The position numbers and the translations under genes were made by a program. The notes under the pieces are model-generated. The model was not told the DNA's origin. It worked only from the letters and a program-made list of their open reading frames with translations, and searched no databases. Below, one piece after another: positions 26,584 to 43,910 of a stretch of 64,000 bases of DNA. The first letter of the stretch is position 1; each line of letters starts with the position of its first letter. Source of the DNA: Sulfuricurvum kujiense DSM 16994 (GTDB taxonomy: Bacteria > Campylobacterota > Campylobacteria > Campylobacterales > Sulfurimonadaceae); assembly GCF_000183725.1 (NCBI RefSeq), contig NC_014762.1:1178001-1242000 (forward strand), in the 5' to 3' direction.

Positions 26584-29500
26584 ATGGCGACATCAACTAC
26601 CGAAATTGAAGCTTTTGCTGACAAAATACAACTAATGGGTTTAATACCTGGTCCACAAAAACCTTATATAGGATTTTTAAGTGCGAATGGGGGATTAGTA
26701 ACCAGTCTTGGCGATTTGATTAACAAAATAGACAATGGTACTGTTACACGTAATGACTATATTGATGTATTGAAAGATATAGGTGCAGTTGGAACTGGAG
26801 CAGCAGCATTAGCAAACTTAACAGGTTTAGTTGCAGTAAATCCATTATTATTGCTTGGATTAGGTCTTGGTTTAGCAGCATTAGACTATGCCGACGAACA
26901 TAACTACGATACCACAGAAATGTATAATGATATCAAATCTAAATGGGATCAAGTAACAGATTACCTAAACGATAACGGAGACACTCCTTCTCCAGACGAC
27001 CTCACCTACGACCCAAGTAAGTTTAATCCAAACACACCGCAACCCGATCTCGATCATGACGGTATCCCTGATATCTATGATCCCGATATGGATAACGATG
27101 GAATCCCTGACAACCAAGATTCTGATATGGATAATGACGGTATCCCTGATGACATCGATCCCGATCCGCTGACACCCGAACCACAGCCTGACAACCCCGC
27201 CGACGGTCACCCCTTTGCCCTTGAGCGCTTCGATCCACCGCGCCGTGATCCCTTGGTACTCGACCTAAACAAAGACGGTCTGATTTCCACCGTATCGCTT
27301 GCTGATTCCACCGCCTATTTCGACCTCACAGGGGATGGGATAAAAGAAAAAGTGGGCTGGGTAAGTGCCTCTGAGGGGATCGTAGCATTCGATAAAAACG
27401 GTAACGGTAAGATAGACGGAATCAGTGAAGTATTCGGAACCGCTACGACGAGCGGATTTGCGGAACTGAGAAGTATCGCCGACAGCAACTATGACAACAT
27501 CATCGATAGACGTGACGAACTCTACAATCAGCTGAAAATCTGGCAAGACACCAACGGTGACGGTATTTCCCAATCCAATGAACTCAAATCCCTCACCCAA
27601 GCAGGAGTCAAAAATATAGAGTTAAACGTATTTGCCACCAACATCAATCTTAACGGTAATGTATTATCCGAAGCGGGACGCTACGGTGACAGTAGCGGTA
27701 CCCGTTCTCTCGCCGCCGATATCGAACTCACCTTTGATTCGCGGATCACTACCGTCGATACCTCTCTGATCCCCGATTATACCGTCCATCCTGATGCAGC
27801 AACCCTGCCGAAACTGCGAGGATACGGAACGGTCTACAACAGTGAAATCGCCTACAACGTCAACGATAATCTCCGAAATCTAGCTATCGGTATGTCACAA
27901 GATATTACCGCCGTAGCCACACAGTTTGATGCGTTTATCGCCGAATGGTCGGGATTGAATACTCTATTGCGAAACGCTCAGGAGAAATACGCTCTCACCA
28001 CCGCACCAATCCTCTCGGAAATGGATAAAAAAGTATGGATTTACGAACACTTTATCGGAATTGACCGTTTCAGCAGCGGTATCGAAGCACGGATTAATAC
28101 AACGGCATCGGCGATGAAGACAGGGGCTTCGGCGAATGTAGCTTCAGGACGGTATACAGATGCCAATGTCAATGCCGCTTATGGCAGACTTCACGATCGC
28201 TATCAAGCCGTATTCGCTCTCCAAGCACTTTATCCCCAGATCATGGATATCATGACATATAATGTCAGTATCGATGAATTTACTATTCCCGATACAGCGG
28301 TATTTACCCAAAATGTCATCGATTATCTGAACAATGCGGATAAATCACTCGAATCCAAGCTCTATCTTGCCGATACCATGAATACGCTGGAGACGACGTT
28401 TCTAAATTTTAGCGCTGCCGATGTAACGGCAAGTATCACCGACCCGCTCATGAAAGAGCTCATCAGCGGAATCTATGCCGGAACCTACAAAGCGCACGTC
28501 TATGAAAACGGTACCTACACATCGGGCAATATTCTCGCCGTTGGAAGTGAGAACGGCGAGTCGATCACCATCAACGGTTCGGCAGGTTCTACGGTACTTG
28601 CAGGTGAGGGGAACGATGTTCTCCGCGGCTCAAGCGGAAACGACGTTTATCTCTACCGCAGAGGTGACGGAGTCGATACGATTATCGACGGAGGGGGAAG
28701 CGATACCCTCCGTCTCACCGATATCCTCCAAAGCGATATCATTTTGCGCTCATCAGGCACCGATCTGATTATCGGGTGTGTCGAAGAGGGGAAAACGTTT
28801 GAAGAACTGGGCAATACCGTAACGCTTGTCAATTGGGCGGAGAGTGCGAACCGAATCGAGAATGTCCGTTTCAGCGACGGCAGCAGTCTCGATTTCTCTC
28901 AGGTGATTAAAGATTATTTTATTACGAACAATGATGATCGTATCGATCTAACAGCCTCTTCAGATATCATCAATACACTAGCGGGTAACGATGTAGTACA
29001 TGGTTTGGGTGGAAGCGATACCCTTAATGGTGGAGAGGGAGATGATACTCTTTATGGCGATGAGGGTAATGACACTTATATCTATAATCTCGGGGACGGT
29101 AAAGATATCATTACGGATTTGTCGGGGGCGGATAGTCTCCGATTCGGTGCAGGGATAACGGCAGAGTTAATCGCTGTACGATATCTCGCCAACGGTGATA
29201 TGATGATCGCCCTCAAAGACGCGGATAAAACGTTTGAGGAACTCGGTGATACCATCACGATCAAAGGGTGGAGCAATGCTTCTAACCGTATCGAGCAGAT
29301 TCTTCTGAGCGACGGCACCGCACTGAGTATTGATACGCTGCAAGTCGGAAGTGAGGGGGCGGATACCCTCTTCTTCGGTGATAGCGGTATCGTTTTTAAT
29401 GCACTCGGAGGCGATGATCGGGTTACCTCCGGAAGTGGAGCCGATGTGATCGACGGCGGCAGCGGAAACGACACGATCAATGCGGGGAATGGAGCTAATA

Positions 29501-32500
29501 GTGTTCATGGAGGTGAAGGGGATGACACTCTTATGAGCGGAAGCGGAGCCGATAGTCTAGAAGGGGGAAGCGGAGCCGATATACTGAGTGCCGGAGCGGG
29601 GAATGATACCCTCAGCGGCAGCAGCGGAGTCGATACCTTGCAAGGGGGTGGAGGAAATGATCTCTATCTCTACGTGCGCGGCGACGGCAAAGATACCGTT
29701 ATCGACGAGGCCGGAGCCGATACTCTTGCGTTCGGCGAGGGGATCGCACAGAGCGATCTGATCGAGGTTGTCAAACCCGGCAGTAATGATCTGCTCGTGG
29801 GAGTGCGCGAGGAGGGTAAAAGTTTCGAAGAACTGAGTGACGTTATCACGATCAAAAACTGGGTCAACACCCTCGACCGAGTCGAAACGATTACGTTTTA
29901 TGACGGCAGTATCATCGATTTGGCCGCTATACAATCGGTAACCGAAGGGGCTGATAATCTCGTCTACGGTGATTTTACTACTACCGTCGATGCATTGGGA
30001 GGAGACGATACGGTGATTACGGGTACGGCCGCCGATATGTTGCACGGAGGCAGTGGTAATGACACGCTCCGAAGCAGTGCGGGCGATGATACCCTCTACG
30101 GCGATGCGGGAAGTGATACATTGTATGCGGGTATCGGTAATGACACTCTAAGCGGCGGTGATGGGGCTGATACCCTCTACGGTGAGAACGGTAACGATAC
30201 TTTAGCGGGTAACGGCGGAAACGACACCCTAAGCGGGGGGCTTGGTAACGATACCTATCGCTTTGCTCTGGGAGAAGGTAAAGATATCTTCATTGACGAA
30301 TACAGCTACGGTTCGGGAGATAACGATACTCTTCATTTCGGTGAGGGTATTACGGCGGATAATCTCGTCGCCCGCGCGGTAAGCGGCAGCAACGATCTGC
30401 AAATCGCCATCTGTGAGAGCGGCAAAGGGTTCGATGAACTCAGTGACGTCGTCACCCTCAAAAACTGGTTTGACGCCAACAAACGAATCGAGAACTTCGT
30501 CCTCTCCGACGGAACATCAATCAGCCTCTCGCAAATGCAGGGGGGAACGGACGGAGATGATTACCTTGTCTTCGGGGATAGCGATACCGTGATCGATGCG
30601 CTGGGCGGTAACGATACGGTTATCACCGCCAACGGCAACGACACTCTTGGAGGAGGAACGGGGAATGATATCCTGATCTCTAACGGTGGTAATGACACCC
30701 TCAGCGGCGGCAGCGGTGCCGACACATTAGAGGGGGGAGGGGGCAGCGATACCTACCGTTTCGGCATCGGAGATGGCAAAGACCGCATCACCGATAGTTC
30801 AGGACTCGATTCCCTCATCTTTGGTGAGGGAATTATTGCGGATAATCTGATCGCCCGATTTGTCAGCGGCAGCGACGATCTGCAAATCGGAATCCGCGAA
30901 GAGGGAAAAAATTTCGATCAGCTCAGTGACGTCATTACTATCAGCGGCTGGCGTAACGTGGCGTACCGAGTCGAAAACCTCCGCCTCAGCGATGGAAGTG
31001 CAATCACCCTCACACAGATCGAACACTCCGGCGATGGGGATGATTATCTCGTATTCGGCGATGAGGGAGTCATCGTCGATGCACTCGGGGGTAACGATAC
31101 ACTCATCACAGGAGATGGAGCGGACACAGTAAACGGCGGTGATGGAAATGATACCTTACTCAGCGGTAAGGGTAACGATACCCTCAGCGGCGGCAGCGGC
31201 AGTGACACCCTCAAAGGGGGAACGGGGAACGATACGTATCTCTTCAATCGCGGTGACGGAGCCGATACGATCTTCGATGAACTTGGCAATGACATCTTCA
31301 CTTTCGGAGAAGGGATCACCCAAGACGATTTGATTTTTAAGCAACAGGGAAATACTCTCCTGATCGGTATCGCCGAAGTGAATAAAACGTTCGATCAGCT
31401 CAGTGATGTCGTAACCTTTACCGATTGGTTTAAAACCGATACGAATGTGGAGTCATTGCATTTCGCAGACGGCTCATTTATGAGCCGATCGGATGTTGCC
31501 GGCTTGTTTGTACCCAACGATATAGACGGAGCGCTCTACAGCAAAACGGGTGCGCAGATGTACGGGGGAAGCGGAAACAATGCCTATGTTTACAATCGCG
31601 GCGATTTTATCGTCGTCATCGATGATAGCTATAAACAAGGGGATATTGAAGTCAACGCGGGAGAAGATACCCTTTATCTCAGCGGCGGAATTAATAAAAA
31701 CGATGTGACGTTTGGTGTGGTCGGAAACGATCTTATCCTCAAAATCACCCCGAAAGTCGAGACGTACGAACAGCTCAGAGATTACGTCGTTATCAAAAAC
31801 TGGGCTGATACGAACAAAGGGGTTGAAAAAGTCATCTTCAGCAACGGAGAAATCCTGACAATCGACAAAACCGCTGCCTATCCCGTGACAACGTTTAACT
31901 ACGCATGGGTATCAAGCCGATACAAAATTTACGGTGATGATGTAAATACGGTTGTAGGAACCGTTACGGATGAATCTTTTGAGACCAACGGCGGTAATGA
32001 TACGATCAATGCCGGTGGGGGAAATGACCGCATCGATGCGGGTATAGGTAATGACGTAATCGAGGGGGGAGACGGAAACGATGTTATCACGATGAGTGCA
32101 GGCGATGATACGGTTACCGACAGTGCAGGGGATGATGTCTATCTTTATAATCGCGGAGACGGACAAGATACCGTGTATGATCTCGGCGGAAACGATAAAG
32201 TCATGTTCGGCGAGGGGATTAGCGTTGAGGACGTACTCGTACAGGTTCAGGGAAGCCGGGATATCGTTGTAGCGCTCAAAGACGGAGAACGTCCTTTTGA
32301 AGAGCTAAGCGATAAGCTCATCATCAAAAATTACTATAGCGGCAAGAATTGTATCGAGACGTTCGGATTTGCAAACGGCGAAGCGGATATGAATGTCGAG
32401 GCCATAGTACAAAGTATTCCCAAAGAGGATAATCGTGCGATGAAGTTTGATGGAATAGACGATGCCGTTATCGTTTCAGACGCGAGTACGTTTAATGTCG

Positions 32501-35500
32501 CCGACGGCGTCTCTTTGGTCGCTAATGTGAGTTATCAGGGTAATGGGGGGATGGTTATATCTAAACATTACACCCACAATAACCGTTCCTACGATATGCA
32601 GGTCAATGGTACAGGCAAAGTAATATTTGATGCAATCGATGTGCATAATTCAACGCATATTATAGAGTCAACGACTGTTTTGCAGCCTGGAGAAATGTAT
32701 GATATCGCCGCAACCTACGATAAAGCGACCGGAGTTTCGAGAATTTATATAAACGGTGTGATCGATACGGAAGTTCGTACGGGTAGTTTTGACATTATGC
32801 AATCCAGCCAAGCCGTAGTGGTCGGAGCGTATTGGGGTTCGGGGACTTCTTTACGCGGTTATTTTAACGGGACAATCAGTGACGTGCAGGTTTTTAACCG
32901 GGGATTGACATCGGAGGAGGTGACGACTCTGGTCGCTGATGGCAGCGTAAAAAACAGCTTATTAGCCCATTATGATTTTGAAGGGGTCGATCCGCTGGAA
33001 GATAGTTCCTCTTATGCGCATACGGCAGTTATACGTGGCAATCCGATCGTTGTCGATGTGCGCGATGGGGCTTTCACTCCTCCTCTTATTCTGGATATCA
33101 ATGCCAACGGTACTACGTCGATTTCTCTTAGCGCTTCACATACGTACTTCGACTATGCGGCAGATGGATTGAAAGAGCACACGGCATGGATTGAACAAGG
33201 GGATGCGCTGTTGGTGCGTGATATTAACAATGACGGTATCATTAACGACGGAAGCGAACTCTTCGGAGAGAAAACTAAGCTCATCGATGGATCTTTTGCC
33301 TCAGACGGTTATGCGGCATTGGCGCAATACGATACCGACAGCGACGGTAGAATCGATAAAAAGGATACCGGCTTTTCGCAGCTTAAACTCTGGAAAGATA
33401 CGAATCTCAACGGAAAAACGGATAGCGGAGAGTTGACGTCTCTTTCACTAGAGGGTATTACCTCTCTTTCGCTTAACCGTATCGACGGCAGTGTCTACAC
33501 CCAGACGACTGAAAACGGAAATATCATTACCAATGAAACCAACTATACGACGCTTTTGGATACGGGTACCATGCGCGACGTGTGGTTTAAGATCGATGCA
33601 GCCGATACGATTACCGACAACGATACGATCTACGGTACGCTTGATGAGGAAACGCTCAGCGGAGACGTCGGCAACGATACCTACGTCATCGCCTACGGCG
33701 GCGGGATCGATGTGATCGACGATCATGGCGAGGGAGCGGACACGATCAAATTCATAAACGGCATTACCCCCGATCGTCTGATCGTCCAATGGATTCGCGG
33801 AACGGATGATTTGCGTATCGGCATCCGTGAAAATGGTCAGGATGATACCCCGATGACGGAATTAGCCAATACCTTGACAATTAAAAATTGGTTTAACCGA
33901 ACAGGGAATATCGAACAATTCATATTTAACGACACCACTGCTCTTGATCGTCAAGGTATCTACGATTTACTCTTAAACGTTGAAGGTGATTTGATCGCAC
34001 GTGTTCTCGACAGCGAGGGTACACTCTCCGGCAACAGCGGCAATGACCTCCTCTACGGAGCAGACGGGGGCGAAGTATTAAACGGAAACGGAGGAGACGA
34101 CTACCTTCGTGGACTGTCCGGAGATGATCGCCTCGATGCCGGCAACGGTGACGATACGCTTAATGGGGAAGTCGGAGCCGATACCCTTGAGGGGGGGATG
34201 GGTAATGATTACTATCTCTTTGACAAAGGGGACGGCAAAGACCTCATTATCGATACCGGGGGGATCGATACCCTTTATTTTGGTAAAAAAATTAGCCGCC
34301 GTGATCTCATTATCACGGAAGAGGGTGAGGATTTAGTCGTTACTTTCGGTTACGATGACGGTAAAAATATCGATGAAATCGACCGTATTACGCTCAAAAA
34401 CTGGACTGTGGACGGTTTTAAAATTGAATCCTTTGCGTTCAGTGACGGTCAATCGTACTCATTGAGCGAACTGATTGAAAGAACAACCAATCATACACCT
34501 GAGATGTTTTTCGAAGAAGGAGAACGAAACCTCGGCAAAGAACGTAGTGCCAAGGGGATTTTGCTTGCCGATGATATCGACGGCGATACGTTAACCTACA
34601 CTGTTATCAATGCACCGGTGATGGGTACTATCCATATTAACCAATACGGTATTTGGACTTATACCGGCACCTCGAAGAAAGTCGGTACGGATACAATCAC
34701 AATCGCTATTGATGATGGACAAGGCGGTGAAGTGATAACGACGCTGTCTTTCGTCATGGAAGCATTAAATCAAGCCCCCGAAGCTCTCGCTGAATCTACC
34801 AATACCCTCCAAGACATTCGAGCTCTCAGCGGCGAAGTGGGAGCAACAGACGTAGATGGTGACGTTCTCACTTATACTGTTTCAACAGCAGCATCTCACG
34901 GAATCCTTAGCGTCGATCAGAACGGAGCATGGGATTACAGTGTTGCGGATAGCTATATGGGAAGCGACAGTGCCGTTATCACGATCGATGACGGCAACGG
35001 AGGGATAGTTACCCAAACCTTGAACTTCGAAGTCAACGTTTCAGCTCTGACATTATCCGATAGTATTATCAATATCCTAGAAGACTCATCGACAACCGGA
35101 ATCTTTAGCGTAGAGAATCCTATTCAAGGAGCATTGTCGTATGAAGTTCTAGGCAGTTCAACCAAAGGTGACTTCACCCTCAATGAATCAGGGGAATGGA
35201 GTTATACCCCATCGGAAAATTTCAACGGTGACGATAGTGTCACGATCAAAGTGACAAATGAGTATGGTCTTAGTACAACGGCTACCGTCTCTTTTGCTAT
35301 TGAAGCGGTGAATGATGCTCCTGTGCTCGTAGAAGTTCCGGCTTCTATTACTCTCTATGCAGGTGCGTCAGCAACCGGCAGTATCCAAGCTTCTGATATA
35401 GAGGGCGATACACTAAGCTATAGTGTCACTGCTCCGGAACATGGAGTTCTCAATATAAATGAGAGCGGAGCGTGGAGTTACACCGCAGAACCATACTACG

Positions 35501-36615
35501 CAGGGCAAAGCAGTGCTACCGTTACCATCGATGACGGAAACGGAGGCAGCACAGTGGCCACGTTGAATTTCACAAACCTGATGACCCCGGATTGGCAATA
35601 CAGTTACGCCGGAGAAACCCTCACTATCAACGATAATGACGGAACTGATACGGTGATGATGAACACTGTCTCTATGAATGAACTTACCTTTATCCAAGAA
35701 GGAAATAACCTTCGTATCGATGTTAAAGATCAACCGGATGTACTCCTTACCGATTACTTTGCATCACCGGCTAATGGTGTCGAGTCGATTCAAACTTCAG
35801 AAGGGAATATAAATCTCTTCAAAGAACAAATTGGGACGAGCGGTAGTTTTTTCGGTATAGCATTGGGGAACAATCATGATAATCTGATTAGCGGAAACAC
35901 AAAAAACAACACTGTCTCCGGAGGCAAAGATGATGATATTCTCTTCGGTAATGATGGAAACGATACTTTATTAGGAGATACAGAAAATGATCTGTTGGTA
36001 GGCGGAGAAGGGAATGACACTCTAAGCGGCGGTGATGGGGCAGACATCCTCTATGGGGATAACGGCAACGACACACTTAGCGGTGACGCAGGCAACGATA
36101 AACTCTTTGGAGGTAATGGTAACGATACCCTGTTCGGCGGAAACGGAAACGACCTTTTGTCCGGAGGAGAAGGAACAAACACCCTTAGCGGAGGATCAGG
36201 AGATGATACCTACCTGATTATTAAGGGTACCCCTAATACGACTATCACTGAAAATGTACTAGGATTCGGATTATTCGGTCGTTGGTTCGGACAAGAGGGC
36301 GGTACCGATATACTCAAATTCGGTGAAGAAATTACGAAAGAAGATATTAGTTTCCTGATGAAAGGAAATGATCTTTTGCTCCAATACGGCGATAATGAGT
36401 TCATAACGATCAATAATCAGAAGAGCGAAGCTAACCGAATCGAAAAATTTGAACTAAATGATGGAAGTTATCTTACGAATACCGATATTGACCGAATCAT
36501 TCAGCAATTGAGTGCCTACAGCAAAGATCAAGGCTTCCACATCAAAGACAATACTCAAATACAATCCAACCAGGCACTGATGAATATCGTAGCGGCAGGG
36601 TGGCATGCCCTATAG
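26584..36615 (+). CDS. Giant RTX protein with hydrophobic N-terminal domain (type I substrate)
   Basis: 3343 residues, the only member of the array with a full body. Approximate order: hydrophobic Gly/Leu/Ala-rich domain (1-125, ALANLTGLVAVNPLLLLGLG); Asp-rich type-3-like Ca-binding repeats (150-205, DMDNDGIPDN); core module (218-530); RTX nonapeptide blocks GGxGxDxL alternating with HCBP-related 'VTLKNW..RIENFxLSDG' blocks (650-1950); LamG/concanavalin-like domain (1953-2120); a second, diverged copy of the core module (2165-2300); more RTX (2330-2630); four cadherin/VCBS-like repeats (2635-3000, DDGNGG.V..TLNF); last RTX block (3114-3209); and a Cys-free C-terminus of the type I signal kind. 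Exported and folded by Ca2+; likely adhesive or cell-targeting. It is the natural substrate of the exporter at 17-22 kb. Confidence 0.9.
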   Translation: MATSTTEIEAFADKIQLMGLIPGPQKPYIGFLSANGGLVTSLGDLINKIDNGTVTRNDYIDVLKDIGAVGTGAAALANLTGLVAVNPLLLLGLGLGLAALDYADEHNYDTTEMYNDIKSKWDQVTDYLNDNGDTPSPDDLTYDPSKFNPNTPQPDLDHDGIPDIYDPDMDNDGIPDNQDSDMDNDGIPDDIDPDPLTPEPQPDNPADGHPFALERFDPPRRDPLVLDLNKDGLISTVSLADSTAYFDLTGDGIKEKVGWVSASEGIVAFDKNGNGKIDGISEVFGTATTSGFAELRSIADSNYDNIIDRRDELYNQLKIWQDTNGDGISQSNELKSLTQAGVKNIELNVFATNINLNGNVLSEAGRYGDSSGTRSLAADIELTFDSRITTVDTSLIPDYTVHPDAATLPKLRGYGTVYNSEIAYNVNDNLRNLAIGMSQDITAVATQFDAFIAEWSGLNTLLRNAQEKYALTTAPILSEMDKKVWIYEHFIGIDRFSSGIEARINTTASAMKTGASANVASGRYTDANVNAAYGRLHDRYQAVFALQALYPQIMDIMTYNVSIDEFTIPDTAVFTQNVIDYLNNADKSLESKLYLADTMNTLETTFLNFSAADVTASITDPLMKELISGIYAGTYKAHVYENGTYTSGNILAVGSENGESITINGSAGSTVLAGEGNDVLRGSSGNDVYLYRRGDGVDTIIDGGGSDTLRLTDILQSDIILRSSGTDLIIGCVEEGKTFEELGNTVTLVNWAESANRIENVRFSDGSSLDFSQVIKDYFITNNDDRIDLTASSDIINTLAGNDVVHGLGGSDTLNGGEGDDTLYGDEGNDTYIYNLGDGKDIITDLSGADSLRFGAGITAELIAVRYLANGDMMIALKDADKTFEELGDTITIKGWSNASNRIEQILLSDGTALSIDTLQVGSEGADTLFFGDSGIVFNALGGDDRVTSGSGADVIDGGSGNDTINAGNGANSVHGGEGDDTLMSGSGADSLEGGSGADILSAGAGNDTLSGSSGVDTLQGGGGNDLYLYVRGDGKDTVIDEAGADTLAFGEGIAQSDLIEVVKPGSNDLLVGVREEGKSFEELSDVITIKNWVNTLDRVETITFYDGSIIDLAAIQSVTEGADNLVYGDFTTTVDALGGDDTVITGTAADMLHGGSGNDTLRSSAGDDTLYGDAGSDTLYAGIGNDTLSGGDGADTLYGENGNDTLAGNGGNDTLSGGLGNDTYRFALGEGKDIFIDEYSYGSGDNDTLHFGEGITADNLVARAVSGSNDLQIAICESGKGFDELSDVVTLKNWFDANKRIENFVLSDGTSISLSQMQGGTDGDDYLVFGDSDTVIDALGGNDTVITANGNDTLGGGTGNDILISNGGNDTLSGGSGADTLEGGGGSDTYRFGIGDGKDRITDSSGLDSLIFGEGIIADNLIARFVSGSDDLQIGIREEGKNFDQLSDVITISGWRNVAYRVENLRLSDGSAITLTQIEHSGDGDDYLVFGDEGVIVDALGGNDTLITGDGADTVNGGDGNDTLLSGKGNDTLSGGSGSDTLKGGTGNDTYLFNRGDGADTIFDELGNDIFTFGEGITQDDLIFKQQGNTLLIGIAEVNKTFDQLSDVVTFTDWFKTDTNVESLHFADGSFMSRSDVAGLFVPNDIDGALYSKTGAQMYGGSGNNAYVYNRGDFIVVIDDSYKQGDIEVNAGEDTLYLSGGINKNDVTFGVVGNDLILKITPKVETYEQLRDYVVIKNWADTNKGVEKVIFSNGEILTIDKTAAYPVTTFNYAWVSSRYKIYGDDVNTVVGTVTDESFETNGGNDTINAGGGNDRIDAGIGNDVIEGGDGNDVITMSAGDDTVTDSAGDDVYLYNRGDGQDTVYDLGGNDKVMFGEGISVEDVLVQVQGSRDIVVALKDGERPFEELSDKLIIKNYYSGKNCIETFGFANGEADMNVEAIVQSIPKEDNRAMKFDGIDDAVIVSDASTFNVADGVSLVANVSYQGNGGMVISKHYTHNNRSYDMQVNGTGKVIFDAIDVHNSTHIIESTTVLQPGEMYDIAATYDKATGVSRIYINGVIDTEVRTGSFDIMQSSQAVVVGAYWGSGTSLRGYFNGTISDVQVFNRGLTSEEVTTLVADGSVKNSLLAHYDFEGVDPLEDSSSYAHTAVIRGNPIVVDVRDGAFTPPLILDINANGTTSISLSASHTYFDYAADGLKEHTAWIEQGDALLVRDINNDGIINDGSELFGEKTKLIDGSFASDGYAALAQYDTDSDGRIDKKDTGFSQLKLWKDTNLNGKTDSGELTSLSLEGITSLSLNRIDGSVYTQTTENGNIITNETNYTTLLDTGTMRDVWFKIDAADTITDNDTIYGTLDEETLSGDVGNDTYVIAYGGGIDVIDDHGEGADTIKFINGITPDRLIVQWIRGTDDLRIGIRENGQDDTPMTELANTLTIKNWFNRTGNIEQFIFNDTTALDRQGIYDLLLNVEGDLIARVLDSEGTLSGNSGNDLLYGADGGEVLNGNGGDDYLRGLSGDDRLDAGNGDDTLNGEVGADTLEGGMGNDYYLFDKGDGKDLIIDTGGIDTLYFGKKISRRDLIITEEGEDLVVTFGYDDGKNIDEIDRITLKNWTVDGFKIESFAFSDGQSYSLSELIERTTNHTPEMFFEEGERNLGKERSAKGILLADDIDGDTLTYTVINAPVMGTIHINQYGIWTYTGTSKKVGTDTITIAIDDGQGGEVITTLSFVMEALNQAPEALAESTNTLQDIRALSGEVGATDVDGDVLTYTVSTAASHGILSVDQNGAWDYSVADSYMGSDSAVITIDDGNGGIVTQTLNFEVNVSALTLSDSIINILEDSSTTGIFSVENPIQGALSYEVLGSSTKGDFTLNESGEWSYTPSENFNGDDSVTIKVTNEYGLSTTATVSFAIEAVNDAPVLVEVPASITLYAGASATGSIQASDIEGDTLSYSVTAPEHGVLNINESGAWSYTAEPYYAGQSSATVTIDDGNGGSTVATLNFTNLMTPDWQYSYAGETLTINDNDGTDTVMMNTVSMNELTFIQEGNNLRIDVKDQPDVLLTDYFASPANGVESIQTSEGNINLFKEQIGTSGSFFGIALGNNHDNLISGNTKNNTVSGGKDDDILFGNDGNDTLLGDTENDLLVGGEGNDTLSGGDGADILYGDNGNDTLSGDAGNDKLFGGNGNDTLFGGNGNDLLSGGEGTNTLSGGSGDDTYLIIKGTPNTTITENVLGFGLFGRWFGQEGGTDILKFGEEITKEDISFLMKGNDLLLQYGDNEFITINNQKSEANRIEKFELNDGSYLTNTDIDRIIQQLSAYSKDQGFHIKDNTQIQSNQALMNIVAAGWHAL
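27230..28150 (+). repeat. Core-module repeat copy D (within the full-length RTX gene)
   Basis: The intact parental or recipient copy: no 39-base insertion, one Arg fewer at the PPRR junction, and reading on into the RTX body after ASANVASGRY, exactly where copies A and C switch to their AT-rich tails. Confidence 0.85.
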
Positions 36616-36648: not shown

Positions 36649-38091
36649 TCACAACGCCATCAGCGTTTGATACTCGTTGAGGGCGAAGTCGTCGGTCATT
36701 CCGCTGACGTAATCAGTGACGAGGCGGATACGGTAATAGCGTTCCATAAGGTTGTAGGTTTCCGAATCCTCGGGATTGAGTGTTTTTATATCAGCCTGAT
36801 ACGCAACGATTTGTTTGGAGGAAATGCGTCGGATTAGCCTCATTGCGATAAAACACTCGATCTTTTCATCTTGCAATAGTTTTGTGAAATCTTTAGCACT
36901 GAGTTCCAATAGGGGTTTATAGATATCCAAAAGGCCGTTAACGATCGTATACCCCTGAAGCTCCAGCGTTTGGACTTCACGGTTTTGATAGATGTGTTTT
37001 GCGGAGAGCGTTTCGAGGATTTTTACCGCTTTGTAGTATTTGCTCTGTGTATCATAGTCGAGCAGTGCGCAGTTGAAGCTTCCCTCAAAGATCGCCTGAT
37101 GATTTTTAATATAGATATCCACGACATGATAGACCAACGAGGTAACGAGTTTAGCCTTGATCAGGGTGAAAAACATATTGAACTGGTAGGGTTCTTCTTT
37201 TTCTTTGGCTTGTCGGTACCGATCCTCGATAATCTCAAGGAGATAGTGTTCCCCTTCGGATTCGCACGCTTTTTTGATGAGATCGTAGACCTGATCGAGG
37301 CTCAAAATCCCTTTTTCGACCGCATCTTCCAGATCGGCGGTGAGATAGGAGATGTCATCGGCCGCCTCCATGATGTAGGTGAGGGGAAAACGGTGTCCCG
37401 CTTCGACACCAAGGGTTTGTTGCACCTTTTCAACAAAAGACGCTTCGCTGTAGTAAAAGCCGGGCTTTTTCTTGAGATAGCTAAAGCTATCCTCTTTAGG
37501 AGGTTTTGCCTCATAAGCGCCGCGCGTGTATTTGAGAACCGCTAGGGTTTGGGTATAGGAGAGGTTGAGGCGCTGGAGTTTGGAGATGACCCGTATCGCC
37601 TGTGCATTGCCGTCATAGTTGCAGATATCTTTAGCAATGATATTTTTGATCGTCTGAACTTCTGGACGTGTTGAAGGGAAGGCATCGAGGATCGGCAGCG
37701 CGTTATCCCGCATCCATTTGTTGATCGTCTGCTCCGCAAAATGACCGAACGGAGGATTGCCGATGTCGTGCAGCAGACTCGTCATCTCCGCCGTGGAGAC
37801 GAAAGCGTTTTCGAGCTCTTCGAGACCGTAGGTATCCAGCCCCTGTTTTTTGAGCTTTGCGAGGATCGTTTTGGCGATAAAACGGGCCACCTGAGCCACT
37901 TCGAGCGAATGGGTGAGGCGTGTACGGATCGAGGCGTTAAGCTCCAGTGCGAATACCTGTGTCCGTTTTTGGAGCCGCCTGAATGCCGGAGCCGAGAAAA
38001 TGCGTCCGCGGTCGCTTTCGATGGAGTAATCGAGGTTATCGATGGGGTTGACCTCTCTGTCGGTCGTTATTTTTTTCGTGTAGTCAATCAT
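36649..38091 (-). CDS. dgt: Deoxyguanosinetriphosphate triphosphohydrolase-like protein
   Basis: 480-residue HD-superfamily dNTPase that hydrolyses dNTP to deoxynucleoside and triphosphate, affecting nucleotide pools and phage susceptibility in other bacteria. It has the family start SDRGRIFSAPAFRRLQKRTQVF, metal ligands in THSLEVAQVAR and LLHDIGNPPFGHFAE (the HD pair near residue 110), and MEAADDISYLTADLEDA. The start is ATG 38089-38091 (MIDYTKKI), overlapping the end of the upstream gene by eight bases; a longer frame from 38187 lacks family similarity. Translationally coupled to the fusion gene upstream. Confidence 0.9.
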   Translation of the reverse strand: MIDYTKKITTDREVNPIDNLDYSIESDRGRIFSAPAFRRLQKRTQVFALELNASIRTRLTHSLEVAQVARFIAKTILAKLKKQGLDTYGLEELENAFVSTAEMTSLLHDIGNPPFGHFAEQTINKWMRDNALPILDAFPSTRPEVQTIKNIIAKDICNYDGNAQAIRVISKLQRLNLSYTQTLAVLKYTRGAYEAKPPKEDSFSYLKKKPGFYYSEASFVEKVQQTLGVEAGHRFPLTYIMEAADDISYLTADLEDAVEKGILSLDQVYDLIKKACESEGEHYLLEIIEDRYRQAKEKEEPYQFNMFFTLIKAKLVTSLVYHVVDIYIKNHQAIFEGSFNCALLDYDTQSKYYKAVKILETLSAKHIYQNREVQTLELQGYTIVNGLLDIYKPLLELSAKDFTKLLQDEKIECFIAMRLIRRISSKQIVAYQADIKTLNPEDSETYNLMERYYRIRLVTDYVSGMTDDFALNEYQTLMAL

Positions 38092-40360
38092 GGATAACCT
38101 CTCTGAGTTTTTGATGCACTCTGACCATCGCCAGTGTATCGAGCTTGCAGTATTCGAGAAGGGCGCGGCGGATGCGCTCCTGCTCATTCGAGGTCATTGT
38201 TGCGAGCCTTGCATAGGCGTTCATCGCTTCGCTACCGTTTTGGACGCCGTCGAGCTGTTTGTAGGCATCTGCCATCTCTGGGACGAGGGCGGGGAGGACG
38301 TATTTGATCGAGTAGCTTCCGTTCATGGAGGGGGTGACGTAATGAGCCTTCTGAAACGGCACCATCAGATCACGGAGGTTGGGGAGGATGCTGTTGAGGC
38401 TCTCGCTGAGATCGGGGAAGCTCTGAGCAAGCTTTTCGATCACTCCGCGCTCGAAGCTCATGTTGTACGCCAGTACCGTGACGTTGTTCGGGATGTCACG
38501 GATTAGCTGTTGTGCCAATGCGTAGCGTGGATCGGCACCTGCGGGGGCTAAAAACTCCCGATGCTCCAGTGTCCCGTCGGCGTGCTCGATATGGAGCGAA
38601 TACTGAAACGGTATCTGCTGATAGGGGCTGATCCCGCTCCACTGCGGAACCGCCTGCTGAAACGTCTCGAAATCGAGGTGGTAGATCGGATAGGATAGGG
38701 TGGAGAGGAACTCACCGATAGCGTCGCGGTCGATATGGGTGCGCTGTGCTTTCCAGTTATCGACTTTTTGGCGTTGGAGGGGGGTCATCTTATAGCTATC
38801 GGGTATCTCTTCGATCTGGACGATCCCCTGATCGTAGAGTTCGACCTGATTTTTGCTCCCGAGGTTAAAGATATTAAAGACGGAGTAATCGGGGATGCTG
38901 CGCTGTACTTTCCAGCAGTAGTGCATCGCGTCGCACTCATAGGGATTTTTGCAGTGTTTGCCGATCTCGATGGCAGGTTCGTTCATTTTATTACTTAAGT
39001 AAGATTCAAAGCTTTCTAGAATATTGGGAATATCGACTTGAATTTTTTCTACTTCATCACTGATATCTACTACAGAAAAAAGTTTATAAATGTCTAATGA
39101 ATTACCTCTAACATAGGAACTATCGACATGAACAATATTTGTGCTCTTAATATTTAATCCAAGATTCTTTAATACATAATACTGAATAGACACGTCATGA
39201 ATATATATATCCTTTACAGATGTGGAACTTTTTACTTCATATATTGAAAAACCACTAGCATCAACATGAAGTATATCAATCATGACTAAAATACCATTGT
39301 AGTTAAAGGTGGCTTCGTAAATATACGGCACATTATTTTCAATATACTGTTTAGTTGTATCAAGCATTTGTTTATAATCTTTATTAAATGGTACTTTTTG
39401 TCCATTTGGGAAAAGATTACATGCTAAATCACCTATAACATTACCAGTTTCAAGTATTGCTTCAGCAGATTCATTTTCAATTGTAAGGACAGATGGTTTG
39501 TGCTTTTTTAACCAAAGCGATTTGGGACATTGGATGCCTCTTATATATAGTGATTTAGACAATAGCATACTTATTCTCTCTTCTATACGGTATAACTCTT
39601 TAGAAATTTTATTGAGGGAAAGATAGTTTTTGATCTTTTTATTAATATCATAAATCAGTGGCGCAAGATATAAATTATGTCTTGGTTTCGCAATATCGGT
39701 ATGTGAACAATCTACTGGGCTTGTATGCATTTCTTCAAAAATAGGAAAAGCATTTTCTTTTGGTAACACCCATGATTCATCAGTCGCTCTATAGTAATGT
39801 CTATTTAGTTGATTTTGTAAAATTAAATAATTATCCGTTAAATATTTAATTATTTGTGAGTTTTCTTCAAGTGATTTTACTTGTCTATTAATTCCATTCA
39901 AAAATTTTGCTTTATTTGTTCCTCTATGAGGTGTTGCTAATGTAATATAAAAATTAGTTTTTTCAAAAATATCTGCATTCTTAATTAAAACACCTTTTAC
40001 AATCAATCCACCCATACTATGAGAAATAAAATTAATACTTTTATATTGAGGAATTACTTTTTCGATTTTGAGTGCAGCAAATGTTGATAGTTCTTCAATA
40101 TTTAAATTTTCAATTGGTTCATTTTTAGTAAATCCAAATATCTTATATAACAAAAATACAATACTCTTTTTACTTAATATGTCTTCTGTATGGTATTCTA
40201 AATAACCAATATCTACATGGTCTAAAATTGATTGTTCAAAGTGTTCATGAAAAAATGTTTTATCTTTTGGCTCAAAAAAAGTTTCTTTACTTCCTTGTAA
40301 ACCATGAACGAAAATTATTAGATGATCATTTTTATTGTTTATTTCATAATGTATATTCAA
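38084..40360 (-). CDS. Alpha/beta hydrolase - Cas4-like nuclease - DUF2779 fusion
   Basis: About 758 residues in three parts. The first 250 form a lipase-like alpha/beta hydrolase (LIIFVHGLQGSKETFF; nucleophile elbow FISHSMGGLIV; a candidate catalytic His in CSHTD). Next is a Cas4/RecB-like PD-(D/E)XK segment (LSKSLYIRGIQCPKSLWL; MIDILHVD; IYEVKSS) with a cysteine set (CKNPYECDAMHYC) that could hold an iron-sulphur cluster. The C-terminal third is DUF2779, RNase H-like, with YHLDFETFQ, LAYNMSFERGVIEKL and EYCKLDTLAMV. DUF2779 proteins normally start at LSKSLYIRG, so the hydrolase is an added domain. DNA is AT-rich upstream of about 38985 and host-like below it. TTG at 40360, with AAGGA before it, is the likely start; a TTG at 40390 is also in frame. 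Confidence 0.75.
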   Translation of the reverse strand: MNIHYEINNKNDHLIIFVHGLQGSKETFFEPKDKTFFHEHFEQSILDHVDIGYLEYHTEDILSKKSIVFLLYKIFGFTKNEPIENLNIEELSTFAALKIEKVIPQYKSINFISHSMGGLIVKGVLIKNADIFEKTNFYITLATPHRGTNKAKFLNGINRQVKSLEENSQIIKYLTDNYLILQNQLNRHYYRATDESWVLPKENAFPIFEEMHTSPVDCSHTDIAKPRHNLYLAPLIYDINKKIKNYLSLNKISKELYRIEERISMLLSKSLYIRGIQCPKSLWLKKHKPSVLTIENESAEAILETGNVIGDLACNLFPNGQKVPFNKDYKQMLDTTKQYIENNVPYIYEATFNYNGILVMIDILHVDASGFSIYEVKSSTSVKDIYIHDVSIQYYVLKNLGLNIKSTNIVHVDSSYVRGNSLDIYKLFSVVDISDEVEKIQVDIPNILESFESYLSNKMNEPAIEIGKHCKNPYECDAMHYCWKVQRSIPDYSVFNIFNLGSKNQVELYDQGIVQIEEIPDSYKMTPLQRQKVDNWKAQRTHIDRDAIGEFLSTLSYPIYHLDFETFQQAVPQWSGISPYQQIPFQYSLHIEHADGTLEHREFLAPAGADPRYALAQQLIRDIPNNVTVLAYNMSFERGVIEKLAQSFPDLSESLNSILPNLRDLMVPFQKAHYVTPSMNGSYSIKYVLPALVPEMADAYKQLDGVQNGSEAMNAYARLATMTSNEQERIRRALLEYCKLDTLAMVRVHQKLREVIHD

Positions 40361-40432: not shown

Positions 40433-42790
40433 TTACAACTCCACCACTTTCTCAAACATCTCTTTAATCTCCGTCTCATGTGAGATCAGAAATATCTGCC
40501 GATACGATTCGCTGATCGTGTGAAACGCTTCCATGATCTGGATGCGCCGCTCCTCGTCCTGAGAACCGAACACCTCGTCGAATGCCAGAAACCCGATATT
40601 GTCGCCGCCGCTGAGTTCTCCCAGCGTTTTTGAGATGGCGATACGGAGGACTAGGTTGGCGAGGTCGATCTCTCCGCCGCTGAACCGCTCGATGGGGTAG
40701 CGCTCGCCGTTGTCGTAGATGTAGAAGTCGAACTCGGGGGAGACCTCGATGTGCTGATAGCGTCCGCGGGTGATGCGGCTGTACATCTCGCTGGCGACTT
40801 CGCCGATGTGGGGGGCGACGCGGGCGTTGATGTGGGTTTTGAACTCCGCCATTACCGCTTTGAGCTTCTCGTAGTCGTCGCGGTCGTTTTCGCGGGATTT
40901 GAGGGAGGCGCGGTTGGTCTCGTCGCGCTTGATCTCTTTGTCGATCGCTTCGATGTCGCGGCGGAGGTTGGTCTGCTCCAGCAGTGCGGCGTTGTGCTCG
41001 ACGGCTTTGGCGTCTTTGGCGCTCTCGGCTGTTTTGACATGGACGGCGGCATCGGCGTGGGCTTTCTCACTGTAGGTGTCCTCAGAAATGAGCTTCTGCT
41101 GTGCGGCGATGCTCTGGGTATCGGTCTGTATCTGCGCTCCGAGCTTTTGCGCCGCTTCGGTTTTGGCGGGGATCGTGGCGATGAGGGCTTCGAGCGAGAG
41201 GAGGGCGTCAACTTGGGGTTTGAGGGTATCGCGCTCGCCTCTGAGAGCGATGTGCACCTTTTCATCGTAATTAATATTAACGAGCTGTGCAAGGGCGGTT
41301 TTGTTTGCCAGTCCGCGCGTTTCGATCTCACGGAACTTCTCCTGCGCTTTGGCGAGGTCATGGGTCTTGCTCAGCAGCAGAGCGATCTGTTTGTCGGTGG
41401 TGCTTTGGCGTGTTTCGGCCTCGGTGAGGGCTTTTTGCTGTTGGGTCTTTTGCTCGTTGAGGGTGTTCAGGCGTATTTGCGCTTCGTCGATCTGACGCTG
41501 ATAGACGTCGATGATCTCCCGGTGGAGCGAAGAGAGGACGGCATCGTAGTTTTCCAGAAGAGGGCGGGTACAGACAGGGCAGGCGGACTCGGCCCCCAGT
41601 TCGGTGATGCGGGAGACTTTTTCCTGAACGCCCGCGATGTTGGTGCGGTTGGAAGCGATCTCGGCGGTAGTGCGGGTTATCTGCTCGGTGAGGGTATCGA
41701 ACGCACTTTTGAGGGCTTTAAACTGCGTCTGCTCCTGAATCAGCTGTGTTTTCAGCGTTTCGAGCGGGGCGGTCTCTTTGATGAGCTGTGCTACTTCCTC
41801 TTTTCGGGCCGTGTAGCTTTTGCGCAGCTCTTCCTGCTCTTTTTCCAAACCCTCTTTTTTCAAAAATGCGGCTTTGAGGCTCTCTTGCTCGGAAAGCGAT
41901 TTTTCGAGAGCGTCGAAGCGCGCTTTTTGAGGGAGCTGTGAGGTGTAGCGGCTCTGCTGTGCTTGGAGGGTTTTAAGCTCTTCATCGAGGGCGGTGAGCT
42001 GTTTTTGTTCCAGTGCGAGGGCTTGCTGGAGTTTGTCGAGCGAATCCAGTTTCTTTTGCCGCTCTTCTTTGGCCCTCTGGTGGGTCTCTACGAGAACTTT
42101 GGCGGCTTCGTAGGCGGATTTCAGGGTTGCGGCTTCCTCGTTCAGCTGTTTGATACGGGTTTCGAGTGTGAGGGCGGTTTCTGTTTTGCTCTTGTGATCC
42201 TCGCGGTGCGCTTTGAGGACGTCGTCGCCGAGCAGGAAGCCCGAAGCGCTTTTGAGTTCGCGGTTAAGCTCCCGCAACTCTTCGCGGATCATCTCCTCGA
42301 TCTTGTCGATCTTCTCCAGCCCCAGCAGTCGGCGCATCATCGCTTTGCGTTCGTCGTTTTTCATGGAGCTCAGCGCCGTCAGCTCTTTTTGGGAGGCGAA
42401 GACCGTGTGCAAGAAAGCCTCTTTCCCCATTCCCAGAAGTTTCGTGACGGCGGTGCTCACTTCACGCGCACCCGTGATGATGCTCACATCCGCTTCTTTA
42501 AGGGTGGCGTAGGCGGTGAGGGCTTTGCCCCGGAACTCGCGGATGGCGGTGTAGCTTTTCCCCTCGATCTCGAAATTCAACTCGACTTTGACCCCTCCTG
42601 TGCTTCCGGCGGTGGGGATCAGCTCTTTGGAGCCTTTGTACTCGCCGTACAGGGCGAAGAACACTCCGTCGAATATCGTCGACTTGCCCCGTCCGTTGCG
42701 TCCGAGGATTCCGCACAGACCGCTCTCGAACGTGATCTCATACTCGGCGTAGCGTTTGAAGTTCTGGAGTCTCAGCGATTCAAGCGTCAC
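40433..42790 (-). CDS. sbcC: SbcC-like SMC-family nuclease ATPase
   Basis: 785-residue Rad50/SbcC ATPase that works with the SbcD nuclease to cut hairpins and protein-blocked DNA ends. Walker A is GRNGRGKST (near residue 32). Two long coiled coils flank a zinc-hook CPVC near residue 402. The C-terminus carries signature FSGGEIDLANLVLR and Walker B IGFLAFDEVFGSQDEE. The protein is shorter than E. coli SbcC (over 1000 aa), because its coiled coils are short. Its start overlaps the sbcD-like gene by 11 bases. Confidence 0.9.
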   Translation of the reverse strand: MTLESLRLQNFKRYAEYEITFESGLCGILGRNGRGKSTIFDGVFFALYGEYKGSKELIPTAGSTGGVKVELNFEIEGKSYTAIREFRGKALTAYATLKEADVSIITGAREVSTAVTKLLGMGKEAFLHTVFASQKELTALSSMKNDERKAMMRRLLGLEKIDKIEEMIREELRELNRELKSASGFLLGDDVLKAHREDHKSKTETALTLETRIKQLNEEAATLKSAYEAAKVLVETHQRAKEERQKKLDSLDKLQQALALEQKQLTALDEELKTLQAQQSRYTSQLPQKARFDALEKSLSEQESLKAAFLKKEGLEKEQEELRKSYTARKEEVAQLIKETAPLETLKTQLIQEQTQFKALKSAFDTLTEQITRTTAEIASNRTNIAGVQEKVSRITELGAESACPVCTRPLLENYDAVLSSLHREIIDVYQRQIDEAQIRLNTLNEQKTQQQKALTEAETRQSTTDKQIALLLSKTHDLAKAQEKFREIETRGLANKTALAQLVNINYDEKVHIALRGERDTLKPQVDALLSLEALIATIPAKTEAAQKLGAQIQTDTQSIAAQQKLISEDTYSEKAHADAAVHVKTAESAKDAKAVEHNAALLEQTNLRRDIEAIDKEIKRDETNRASLKSRENDRDDYEKLKAVMAEFKTHINARVAPHIGEVASEMYSRITRGRYQHIEVSPEFDFYIYDNGERYPIERFSGGEIDLANLVLRIAISKTLGELSGGDNIGFLAFDEVFGSQDEERRIQIMEAFHTISESYRQIFLISHETEIKEMFEKVVEL

Positions 42791-43910
42791 GGGTCACCTC
42801 GTCATAGCGTGCAAAGAGGGTTGCTACTTTGGCATTAAGGCGTGCGGCTTCCTCAGCGCTGGCGGTCTGCTCTTCCAAAAAGGCGCCAAAATACTCCTGC
42901 AACGAGGCGGCATTGACCGATTCGGCGGTGGCGGCGGATTCGGTTCGGCGGAACTTACGCTGAATTTGGACGTTCAGAGCCGTAGGAAAACATGCCTCGA
43001 TGTCGCGGTTGGAAATGTCGATGGATTGGGTGGCACTCAGGTTCTCCAAGGTGATAGTGAGCAATGCTCCCTCAATCTCCAAGGAGGAGCCAAGTATGCG
43101 AAGGTCGTCGAATATATCCGCGGATGCCTGTGCATTGATGCGGAGTCGGTGGCTGGGGCGCAGACGGATCGGGTGAAAAACCACCTCAAGAGAATCTCCC
43201 AGTGTGATGAGGGCGTACCCTTTGTCGTTTCGCGTATCGGCACTGCTGGTGCGCTCGGTGGAGCCGGCATAATAAACATTGGGGTGTTTGCCGACGCTTC
43301 CGAATCCGTGCCAGTGTCCGAGGGCGACGTAGTCCATTTTTTCAAACAATCCCTCTTTATCCCTCGGATAGACCCGCTCGCCGTACTCCTCCATCATAAA
43401 CTGCGCGCCGACGGAGCAGTGGAGCATCATCACGTTATGCTTCTCCTCATCCACAGAGGCCTCGCATTGCCCGATCGCCGCGAGATTGGCTTCCTCATCG
43501 TTGATATGGGGAATGCAGTGAAAGTTAATATTATCAAATATTACTTTTTCATACGCTTCTTCGAACACGGGAAAAATATGATCGAGCGTCCGCAGTGCCG
43601 CGAGGATCGGGGAGGCGGAACGGGTGCGGGGGGTGGAGTGGTTTCCCGCGATGATGATCGTCGGGATTCGGGCGACACTGAGCCGTTTGAGCTGGCTGAG
43701 GCAAAAGCTGATGGCGCGGTTGGAAGGGTGGGGCCGGTGGAAGAGGTCGCCCGTGTGGATGACGTAATCGGGTCTGGTTTCCAGTACCGCGTCGATGACC
43801 TGGGTAAAGGCGTCGTAGAAATCGGCTTCGCGCTGATTGATACCCTGAACACTCAGTATCTCAAGATCGTTAAACCCCAGATGGGTGTCGGAGAAATGGA
43901 GGATTCTCAA
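42780..43910 (-). CDS. sbcD: SbcD/Mre11-like nuclease
   Basis: 376-residue metallophosphoesterase, the nuclease partner of the SbcC-like ATPase. All metal-binding motifs are visible: FSDTHLG (residues 6-12), HTGDLFHR, IIAGNHST, LGHWHGFG. The remaining C-terminal region provides the capping domain and the helices that bind the ATPase coiled coil. Co-transcribed with sbcC (overlapping stop/start). Confidence 0.92.
   Translation of the reverse strand: MRILHFSDTHLGFNDLEILSVQGINQREADFYDAFTQVIDAVLETRPDYVIHTGDLFHRPHPSNRAISFCLSQLKRLSVARIPTIIIAGNHSTPRTRSASPILAALRTLDHIFPVFEEAYEKVIFDNINFHCIPHINDEEANLAAIGQCEASVDEEKHNVMMLHCSVGAQFMMEEYGERVYPRDKEGLFEKMDYVALGHWHGFGSVGKHPNVYYAGSTERTSSADTRNDKGYALITLGDSLEVVFHPIRLRPSHRLRINAQASADIFDDLRILGSSLEIEGALLTITLENLSATQSIDISNRDIEACFPTALNVQIQRKFRRTESAATAESVNAASLQEYFGAFLEEQTASAEEAARLNAKVATLFARYDEVTRDA

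What the first reader, a model, noticed from the sequence alone, without database searches (positions are those of the whole stretch)
38084..40360. Three-domain fusion: lipase-like hydrolase, Cas4-like nuclease and DUF2779
DUF2779 proteins with a Cas4-like front are known, but here a serine hydrolase with FISHSMGG is fused ahead of them. Hydrolase plus nuclease fusions are reminiscent of defence effectors. Neighbours include dgt (overlapping by eight bases) and SbcCD; all three act on nucleic acids or nucleotides and related proteins affect phage growth. The group could be a defence module, but no experimental link is visible here.
Basis: partly seen in the sequence, partly recalled or inferred. 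Interest (0 to 1): 0.6.

Follow-up and report, generated by a model that had tools for sequence, protein, structure and literature searches.

The report
Mosaic hydrolase–nuclease fusion in defence island
A bacterial gene has been stitched together by recombination so that a lipase-like enzyme related to one used in the Lamassu anti-phage system is joined to a DNA-cutting protein, inside a gene frame whose middle is otherwise filled with exchangeable anti-phage systems.

Summary
The fusion is real: one open frame of 758 codons (40360→38084, minus strand) with a DUF676-type serine hydrolase, a Cas4-like nuclease with its four cysteines, and a DUF2779 DEDDy exonuclease. All predicted catalytic residues are present. 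It is a mosaic. Residues 1–458 are AT-rich (GC3 12–20%) and of foreign origin; residues 459–758 (GC3 about 70%) are the host lineage's gene. Congeners carry an intact, unfused Cas4-DUF2779 that matches the window at 88–89% in the C-terminal half but 47–51% in the Cas4 half (AU test p=5e-13). No other DUF2779 gene found (91 of 397 phylum genomes, 44 of 228 family genomes) carries an N-terminal fusion. The hydrolase's nearest relatives include LmuA effectors of Lamassu/ABC-3C systems. The protein lies in a recurrent frame, SbcD–SbcC–[slot 1]–Cas4/DUF2779–[slot 2]–dGTPase, found on chromosomes and Aliarcobacter plasmids. Slot 1 holds interchangeable defence genes: Qat, Hachiman, Lamassu, SIR2-HerA, OLD, TrlF. 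Best reading: a slot-1 hydrolase effector became fused to the frame's nuclease in a donor and was then recombined into this genome. A defence role is likely; hydrolase activation through the nuclease/SbcCD is inferred, not shown.

The parts
38084..40360 (-). Three-domain mosaic ORF (TTG start, 758 aa): hydrolase, Cas4-like, DUF2779
   Evidence: Open frame; Pfam/PADLOC; Shine-Dalgarno AAGGA before the TTG
39656..40360 (-). Alpha/beta (serine) hydrolase domain, residues 1-235; HG oxyanion motif 40301-40312, nucleophile in ISHSMGG 40007-40027, putative acid in ATDESW, His in SHTDIAKP 39683-39706
   Evidence: DUF676 43.8 bits; PADLOC LmuA PDLC03851 E 1.4e-6; motif alignment with relatives; coordinates; GC3 12%
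39587..39655 (-). Linker, residues 236-258, followed by the normal start region of Cas4-DUF2779 (Met265 at 39568, a possible internal start)
38987..39586 (-). Foreign, AT-rich Cas4-like half, residues 259-458: first Cys (QCPKSLW), D362, E375-x-K377, QYY motif
   Evidence: GC3 19.5%; 47-51% identity to congeners that are 84-88% identical to each other; AU p=4.6e-13; Pfam Cas_Cas4 20.9 bits
38984..38987 (-). Recombination breakpoint inside the gene (residue 458/459)
   Evidence: blastn homology to four relatives resumes here; GC3 switches from ~20-30% to 70%
38084..38986 (-). Native half: last three Fe-S cysteines and DUF2779 DEDDy 3'-5' exonuclease (D563/E565, D664, Y737xxxD741)
   Evidence: 88-89% identity to congeners, clade support 100/99; Pfam 160 bits; VIA-align Z 13.2, rmsd 3.4, 169 residues against family-B DNA polymerase 5mdn_A
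36649..38091 (-). dgt, dGTPase (ATG at 38091; 8-base overlap), distal end of the frame
   Evidence: NCBIfam NF003429 dGTPase 550 bits, cut-off 405; start by homology
40433..42790 (-). sbcC (Rad50-type, 785 aa), proximal end of the frame; AT-rich DNA begins at its stop codon
   Evidence: Pfam AAA_23/SbcC_Walker_B, Rad50 models, composition, breakpoint
42780..43910 (-). sbcD (Mre11-type nuclease, 376 aa)
   Evidence: Metallophos 54.5 bits; Mre11 model 105.6 bits

Best explanation
The gene is a recombinant (mosaic) effector carried in a mobile-type defence island. SHOWN: a frame of accessory genes, sbcD-sbcC-[slot 1]-Cas4/DUF2779-[slot 2]-dgt, holds interchangeable cargo, much of it known anti-phage systems. 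In this genome slot 1 holds a hydrolase related to the LmuA effectors of Lamassu, and that hydrolase is in one frame with the Cas4/DUF2779 nuclease. The AT-rich segment from the sbcC stop to residue 458 came from another Campylobacterales lineage and was joined to the resident C-terminal half by a crossover inside the DUF2779 gene. The hydrolase-Cas4 junction (residues 236-264) lies wholly inside the foreign DNA, so the fusion most likely predates the transfer. INFERRED: the Cas4 plus DEDDy nuclease part engages invader or damaged DNA ends, probably with SbcCD, and this engagement positions or activates the hydrolase, which then attacks a host ester or lipid substrate so that infection aborts. 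The nuclease part would take the role that the C-terminal docking domain and the Rad50-like LmuB play in Lamassu.
For: Intact ORF with all three predicted active sites. Mosaic: GC3 12-20% versus ~70%, identity split 47-51% versus 88-89%, AU test p=4.6e-13, breakpoint at 38984 in four comparisons. Hydrolase relatives are LmuA effectors with partners: G293 LmuA 261.7 bits plus CTD8 of ABC-3C, followed by a small gene and an ATPase; Klebsiella LmuA 333 bits next to LmuB 712 bits. Frame with cargo exchange: SbcC in 17 and dgt in 13 of 50 DUF2779 loci; frame genes 89-99% identical while cargo between them is unrelated, with borders at gene ends. Cargo includes QatABCD, SIR2 + DUF87 ATPase, Hachiman HamB, OLD, Lamassu LmuA, SIR2 and TrlF. 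Gabija A/B follows sbcC in a congener without DUF2779. DUF2779 = exonuclease clade with a DUF83 front, from published analysis (PMC3985635), supported by fold.
Against: The fusion is known from one genome only. Match of the hydrolase to LmuA is weak (26 bits), and it lacks CTD8, LmuC and LmuB. An internal start at Met265 could yield an ordinary Cas4-DUF2779. The hydrolase part of the structure model is of low confidence. No experiment, no phage data, no substrate.
Confidence: 0.55

Rival explanations
1. The fusion is a passive by-product of cassette exchange. Slot-1 cargo lost its stop codon, and hydrolase and nuclease have no joint function; the nuclease is still made from the internal start at Met265 or merely tolerates the extra domain.
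For: Cargo genes often abut or overlap the DUF2779 start, so loss of one stop suffices for fusion. The Cas4-DUF2779 start region (MLLSKSLY) is preserved. No second case of the fusion.
Against: The junction falls cleanly between the end of the hydrolase domain and the start of Cas4 with an open linker, and all hydrolase motifs are intact in AT-rich DNA where stops arise easily. If the fusion predates the transfer, it also survived it.
Confidence: 0.28
2. The frame is a DNA-repair or nucleotide-metabolism operon: SbcCD, a Cas4/DEDDy exonuclease and dGTPase process DNA ends and dNTPs; nearby defence genes are coincidental passengers.
For: SbcCD and dGTPase have housekeeping roles in other bacteria (established knowledge). 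dgt hits the general dGTPase equivalog (550 bits), not the anti-phage dGTPase model (181 bits, cut-off 400).
Against: SbcC matches only 11 of 41 congeners, several of them fragments, and the long dgt only about five. The set lies on plasmids. Cargo between the frame genes changes completely while frame genes stay ~90% identical.
Confidence: 0.12
3. Assembly chimera or decaying pseudogene.
For: Abrupt composition change inside a gene; unique architecture.
Against: Genome in 5 contigs, 100% complete. Frame open over 758 codons. The AT-rich part lies where congeners also carry AT-rich (28-36% GC) cargo between ~50% GC frame genes. The breakpoint keeps the frame and keeps the Cas4 cysteines from both parents.
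Confidence: 0.03

Closest known systems
Lamassu / ABC-3C, LmuA effector with alpha/beta hydrolase domain (PADLOC PDLC03851; Pfam CTD8 architecture); review PMC10586767
   Same: N-terminal hydrolase domain of the same family; lies next to a Rad50-type ATPase (SbcC); effector part at the N-terminus, proposed DNA-engaging/docking part at the C-terminus
   Different: No CTD8 docking domain, no LmuC, no dedicated LmuB; the C-terminal part is a Cas4-like plus DEDDy nuclease; SbcC comes with its own SbcD nuclease
Cas4(DUF83)-DUF2779 proteins, family F.17 of the RNase H-like superfamily (PMC3985635)
   Same: Cas4-like PD-(D/E)XK front with four Cys and C-terminal DEDDy exonuclease; 62-73% identical to other Campylobacterales members
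   Different: All other members examined start at the Cas4 domain; here a 255-residue hydrolase is fused in front and the Cas4 half is of foreign origin
SbcD-SbcC-cargo-DUF2779-cargo-dGTPase region of Aliarcobacter plasmids (pM830MA, listed gene by gene in PMC6690266; pACRY43158, pAFAEC)
   Same: Same gene order and orientation, same two slots
   Different: Published only as a gene table, without defence interpretation in the passage read; cargo there is Qat, SIR2 + DUF87 ATPase and unnamed ATPases, unfused

Membership tests
Lamassu / ABC-3C (LmuA effector) | N-terminal effector domain of a known LmuA type | tested here: met
   PADLOC LmuA PDLC03851 E 1.4e-6, residues 10-228; weak in bits, but nearest relatives include full LmuA proteins
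Lamassu / ABC-3C (LmuA effector) | C-terminal ABC-3C docking domain (CTD) | tested here: not met
   Pfam finds CTD8 in the G293 relative (217 bits) but none in the window protein
Lamassu / ABC-3C (LmuA effector) | LmuC (middle component) encoded beside it | tested here: not met
   No gene between sbcC and the fusion or between the fusion and dgt
Lamassu / ABC-3C (LmuA effector) | LmuB SMC-like ATPase encoded beside it | tested here: inconclusive
   SbcC hits LmuB at 88 bits, but Rad50 models score 122-156 bits and an Mre11 partner is present
Cas4-like PD-(D/E)XK nuclease | D...ExK catalytic motif and following Q/Y-type motif | tested here: met
   D362, E375xK377 and Q393 YY, aligned over 13 sequences
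Cas4-like PD-(D/E)XK nuclease | Four cysteines for the Fe-S cluster | tested here: met
   C278 from the foreign half, C470/C476/C482 from the native half
Cas4-like PD-(D/E)XK nuclease | Passes the Pfam Cas_Cas4 cut-off | tested here: inconclusive
   20.9 bits against 22.7; Foldseek to Cas4 4r5q E 8.6e-4, prob 1.00
DUF2779 DEDD exonuclease | Passes the Pfam DUF2779 cut-off | tested here: met
   160 bits, cut-off 23.3
DUF2779 DEDD exonuclease | DEDDy motif and exonuclease fold | tested here: met
   D563/E565, D664, Y737xxxD741; Z 13.2, rmsd 3.4 over 169 residues to the family-B polymerase region
DUF676-type serine hydrolase | Family score and GxSxG-like nucleophile elbow with Ser/Asp/His | tested here: met
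   43.8 bits, cut-off 20.3; HSMGG, ATD, SHTDIAKP
SbcCD-DUF2779-dGTPase frame | sbcD, sbcC, DUF2779, dgt in this order, one strand, cargo in the slots | tested here: met
   Window order; further complete or nearly complete frames on chromosomes and plasmids, e.g. L040, L041, L101, L102, L128, L129, L130

The most novel reading that the evidence does not exclude
SbcCD, Cas4/DUF2779 and dGTPase form a previously undescribed cassette platform in Campylobacterales into which whole defence systems are swapped, and the Cas4/DUF2779 nuclease is an adaptor that couples DNA-end sensing by SbcCD to exchangeable effectors. The window fusion is the direct physical link of one such effector (a Lamassu-type hydrolase) to that adaptor.
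Probability: 0.3. Interest if true: 0.8.

Novelty: new variant of a known kind. Interest (0 to 1): 0.6.

Why it matters
DUF2779 has a predicted exonuclease fold but no known function. Its fixed place between SbcCD and dGTPase, with known anti-phage systems swapped in beside it, gives it a testable role in defence. The fusion suggests which kind of partner it works with: a Lamassu-type hydrolase usually tethered to a Rad50-like ATPase. The mosaic also shows how defence cassettes can be exchanged: by crossovers at the ends of, or within, the conserved frame genes.

Tried and rejected
Searches for the hydrolase or the fusion elsewhere found no fusion: genome collection, 399 relatives, plasmids (two distant hits), phages (none), viral contigs (none). 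I considered that the stand-alone hydrolases next to DUF2779 in L042 and L047 were the unfused version of the same domain; the one scanned (L042) gives no LmuA hit and only a weak DUF7379 match, so this was dropped. L022 first looked like a second N-terminal swap, but its 5' part reads as a transposase joined to a disrupted DUF2779 gene. G016/L029, with only the C-terminal part, is simply a contig end. A duplication of the sbcC end in the window's own genome was not found. PDB sequence searches gave nothing useful for the nuclease part and only weak lipase matches for the hydrolase. The structure model (mean pLDDT 55, only 4 sequences in the alignment) is usable for the C-terminal exonuclease and part of Cas4, not for the hydrolase or the chimeric junction. 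Promoter scan uninformative in AT-rich DNA; no terminator-like site on the coding strand between sbcC and dgt. PADLOC hits alone are not proof of defence: 2 of 10 unrelated window genes also score, so I rely on the multi-gene systems. Literature searches found no paper that interprets this frame.
Full report
OBSERVATION. The minus-strand frame 40360-38084 is open over 758 codons, starting at TTG with AAGGA five bases upstream. Pfam finds DUF676 (43.8 bits), PGAP1 (28.5) and DUF2779 (160). The middle part scores 20.9 bits to Cas_Cas4, just under its cut-off, but has the Cas4 motifs and cysteines, and the predicted model matches a Cas4 crystal structure. The DUF2779 part has a DEDDy motif and aligns with the exonuclease region of family-B DNA polymerases (Z 13.2, rmsd 3.4, 169 residues). 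This agrees with the published placement of DUF2779 in the 3'-5' exonuclease clade with a DUF83 front (PMC3985635). dgt begins at 38091, an 8-base overlap.

THE GENE IS A MOSAIC. G+C drops from about 55% to 24-31% at ~38985 and returns at the sbcC stop. GC3 is 12% in the hydrolase, 19.5% in the Cas4 part and 68-71% beyond residue 459. DNA homology with four relatives starts exactly at 38983/38984. Four congeners are 84-88% identical to each other in the Cas4 half and 86-91% in the rest; the window is 47-51% and 88-89%. In the Cas4-half tree the window groups away from its congeners, next to a Sulfurimonas sequence and another member of the same family (67% identity); holding it with the congeners is rejected at p=4.6e-13. 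In the C-terminal tree it falls inside the congener clade at 100/99. Thus a foreign segment reaching from the sbcC stop to residue 458 replaced the resident gene's front. The first Fe-S cysteine comes from the donor, the last three from the recipient.

WHERE THE FUSION AROSE. The hydrolase-Cas4 junction (residues 236-264) lies inside the foreign AT-rich DNA, 200 codons from the recombination point. The simplest inference is that the donor already had the fusion. A later loss of a stop codon in this genome cannot be excluded. The congeners have an unfused gene starting at MxLSKSLY. No above-cut-off DUF2779 frame longer than 553 aa was seen apart from the window's, among 91 positive genomes of 397 in the phylum and 44 of 228 in the family. 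The hydrolase itself was found in 5 of 399 relatives besides this genome (about 25-43% identical, some over short stretches), and none of the loci fetched for them carries DUF2779.

WHAT THE HYDROLASE IS. PADLOC assigns residues 10-228 to LmuA PDLC03851 (1.4e-6). Its relative in G293 is a full LmuA (261.7 bits) with the CTD8 domain of ABC-3C systems, followed by a small gene and an ATPase. The Klebsiella relative is LmuA (333 bits) followed by a small gene and LmuB (712 bits). Two further relatives also hit LmuA. So the domain family includes the hydrolase effectors of Lamassu. The window protein is not itself a Lamassu LmuA: CTD and LmuC are absent (membership test).

THE NEIGHBOURHOOD IS A CASSETTE FRAME. 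In 50 DUF2779 loci of Campylobacterales (chosen for relatedness or score, not at random) SbcC occurs in 17, SbcD in 11 and dgt in 13; SbcC and SbcD are always upstream on the same strand, dgt mostly directly downstream. In congeners the frame genes have 43-51% G+C and the slot cargo 28-36%. Four chromosomal loci of one family share sbcC and DUF2779 at about 89-93% DNA identity while the DNA between them is unrelated, with homology ending within about 20 bases of the gene ends. Five Aliarcobacter plasmids show the same, with dgt shared by four of them. Slot-1 contents include TrlF-type PHP-ATPase, Hachiman HamB, PDC-S06 and PDC-S53 candidates, OLD, Lamassu LmuA and SIR2, complete QatABCD, and SIR2 + DUF87 ATPase. 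Gabija A/B directly follows sbcC in a congener lacking DUF2779. Slot 2 carries helicase-type genes with Mokosh-like hits or a RecQ/UvrD-type protein. The frame on pM830MA appears in a published table without a defence interpretation in the passage read (PMC6690266).

FUNCTION. Shown: domain content, intact motifs, mosaic origin, cassette context. From family knowledge: LmuA hydrolases are effector domains of abortive-infection-type Lamassu systems (PMC10586767); SbcCD processes DNA ends. Inferred: the Cas4/DEDDy part, perhaps with SbcCD, engages invader or broken DNA and controls the hydrolase, replacing the CTD-LmuB arrangement. Main alternative: a tolerated by-product of cassette exchange, with the nuclease made from Met265. 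No experiment was available to separate these.

LIMITS. Defence models alone are a weak test (2 of 10 unrelated window genes also hit). The hydrolase fold was not modelled confidently. One genome per species was held, so purifying selection on the fusion could not be tested.

Noticed in passing
L119:10477-10601, L121:4096-4219, L122:8415-8539, L123:9766-9848, L039:2919-3032: The last ~125 bp of sbcC recurs as an isolated fragment (84-92% identical) in congeners, in four of five cases directly before SIR2, FRG, PHP-ATPase or SIR2-HerA genes and usually where no complete sbcC precedes it; left ends fall within about 5 bp of each other in four of five. It may be a recombination anchor, an att-like site or a carried promoter.
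   Followed up: partly
L120:5114-8983: Congener G031 has a complete Gabija system (GajA 822 bits, GajB 736 bits) directly behind sbcDC, without Cas4-DUF2779.
   Followed up: no
L041:9368-12061, L042:5151-7835, L048:9200-11893: An ~895 aa SF1 helicase-DUF2726 protein with Mokosh-like (MkoA/MkoC) hits recurs directly downstream of Cas4-DUF2779 in slot 2.
   Followed up: partly
L044:7772-12592, L114:8846-13642: A ~1600 aa protein with an exonuclease-like N-terminus (by eye) followed by RecQ-type and UvrD-type helicase domains sits directly behind DUF2779.
   Followed up: no
L022:862-2469: A transposase-like sequence reads in one frame into a DUF2779 remnant: apparently an IS insertion that disrupts the gene in G092.
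   Followed up: no
L131:11642-19464: On Aliarcobacter plasmid pCNAC48 the DUF2779 region is followed by ere(B), msr(D) and mef(A) macrolide resistance genes and transposases in the place where dgt lies on sister plasmids.
   Followed up: no
window 26584-36615: A 3343-aa open frame lies convergent to dgt; not examined.
   Followed up: no
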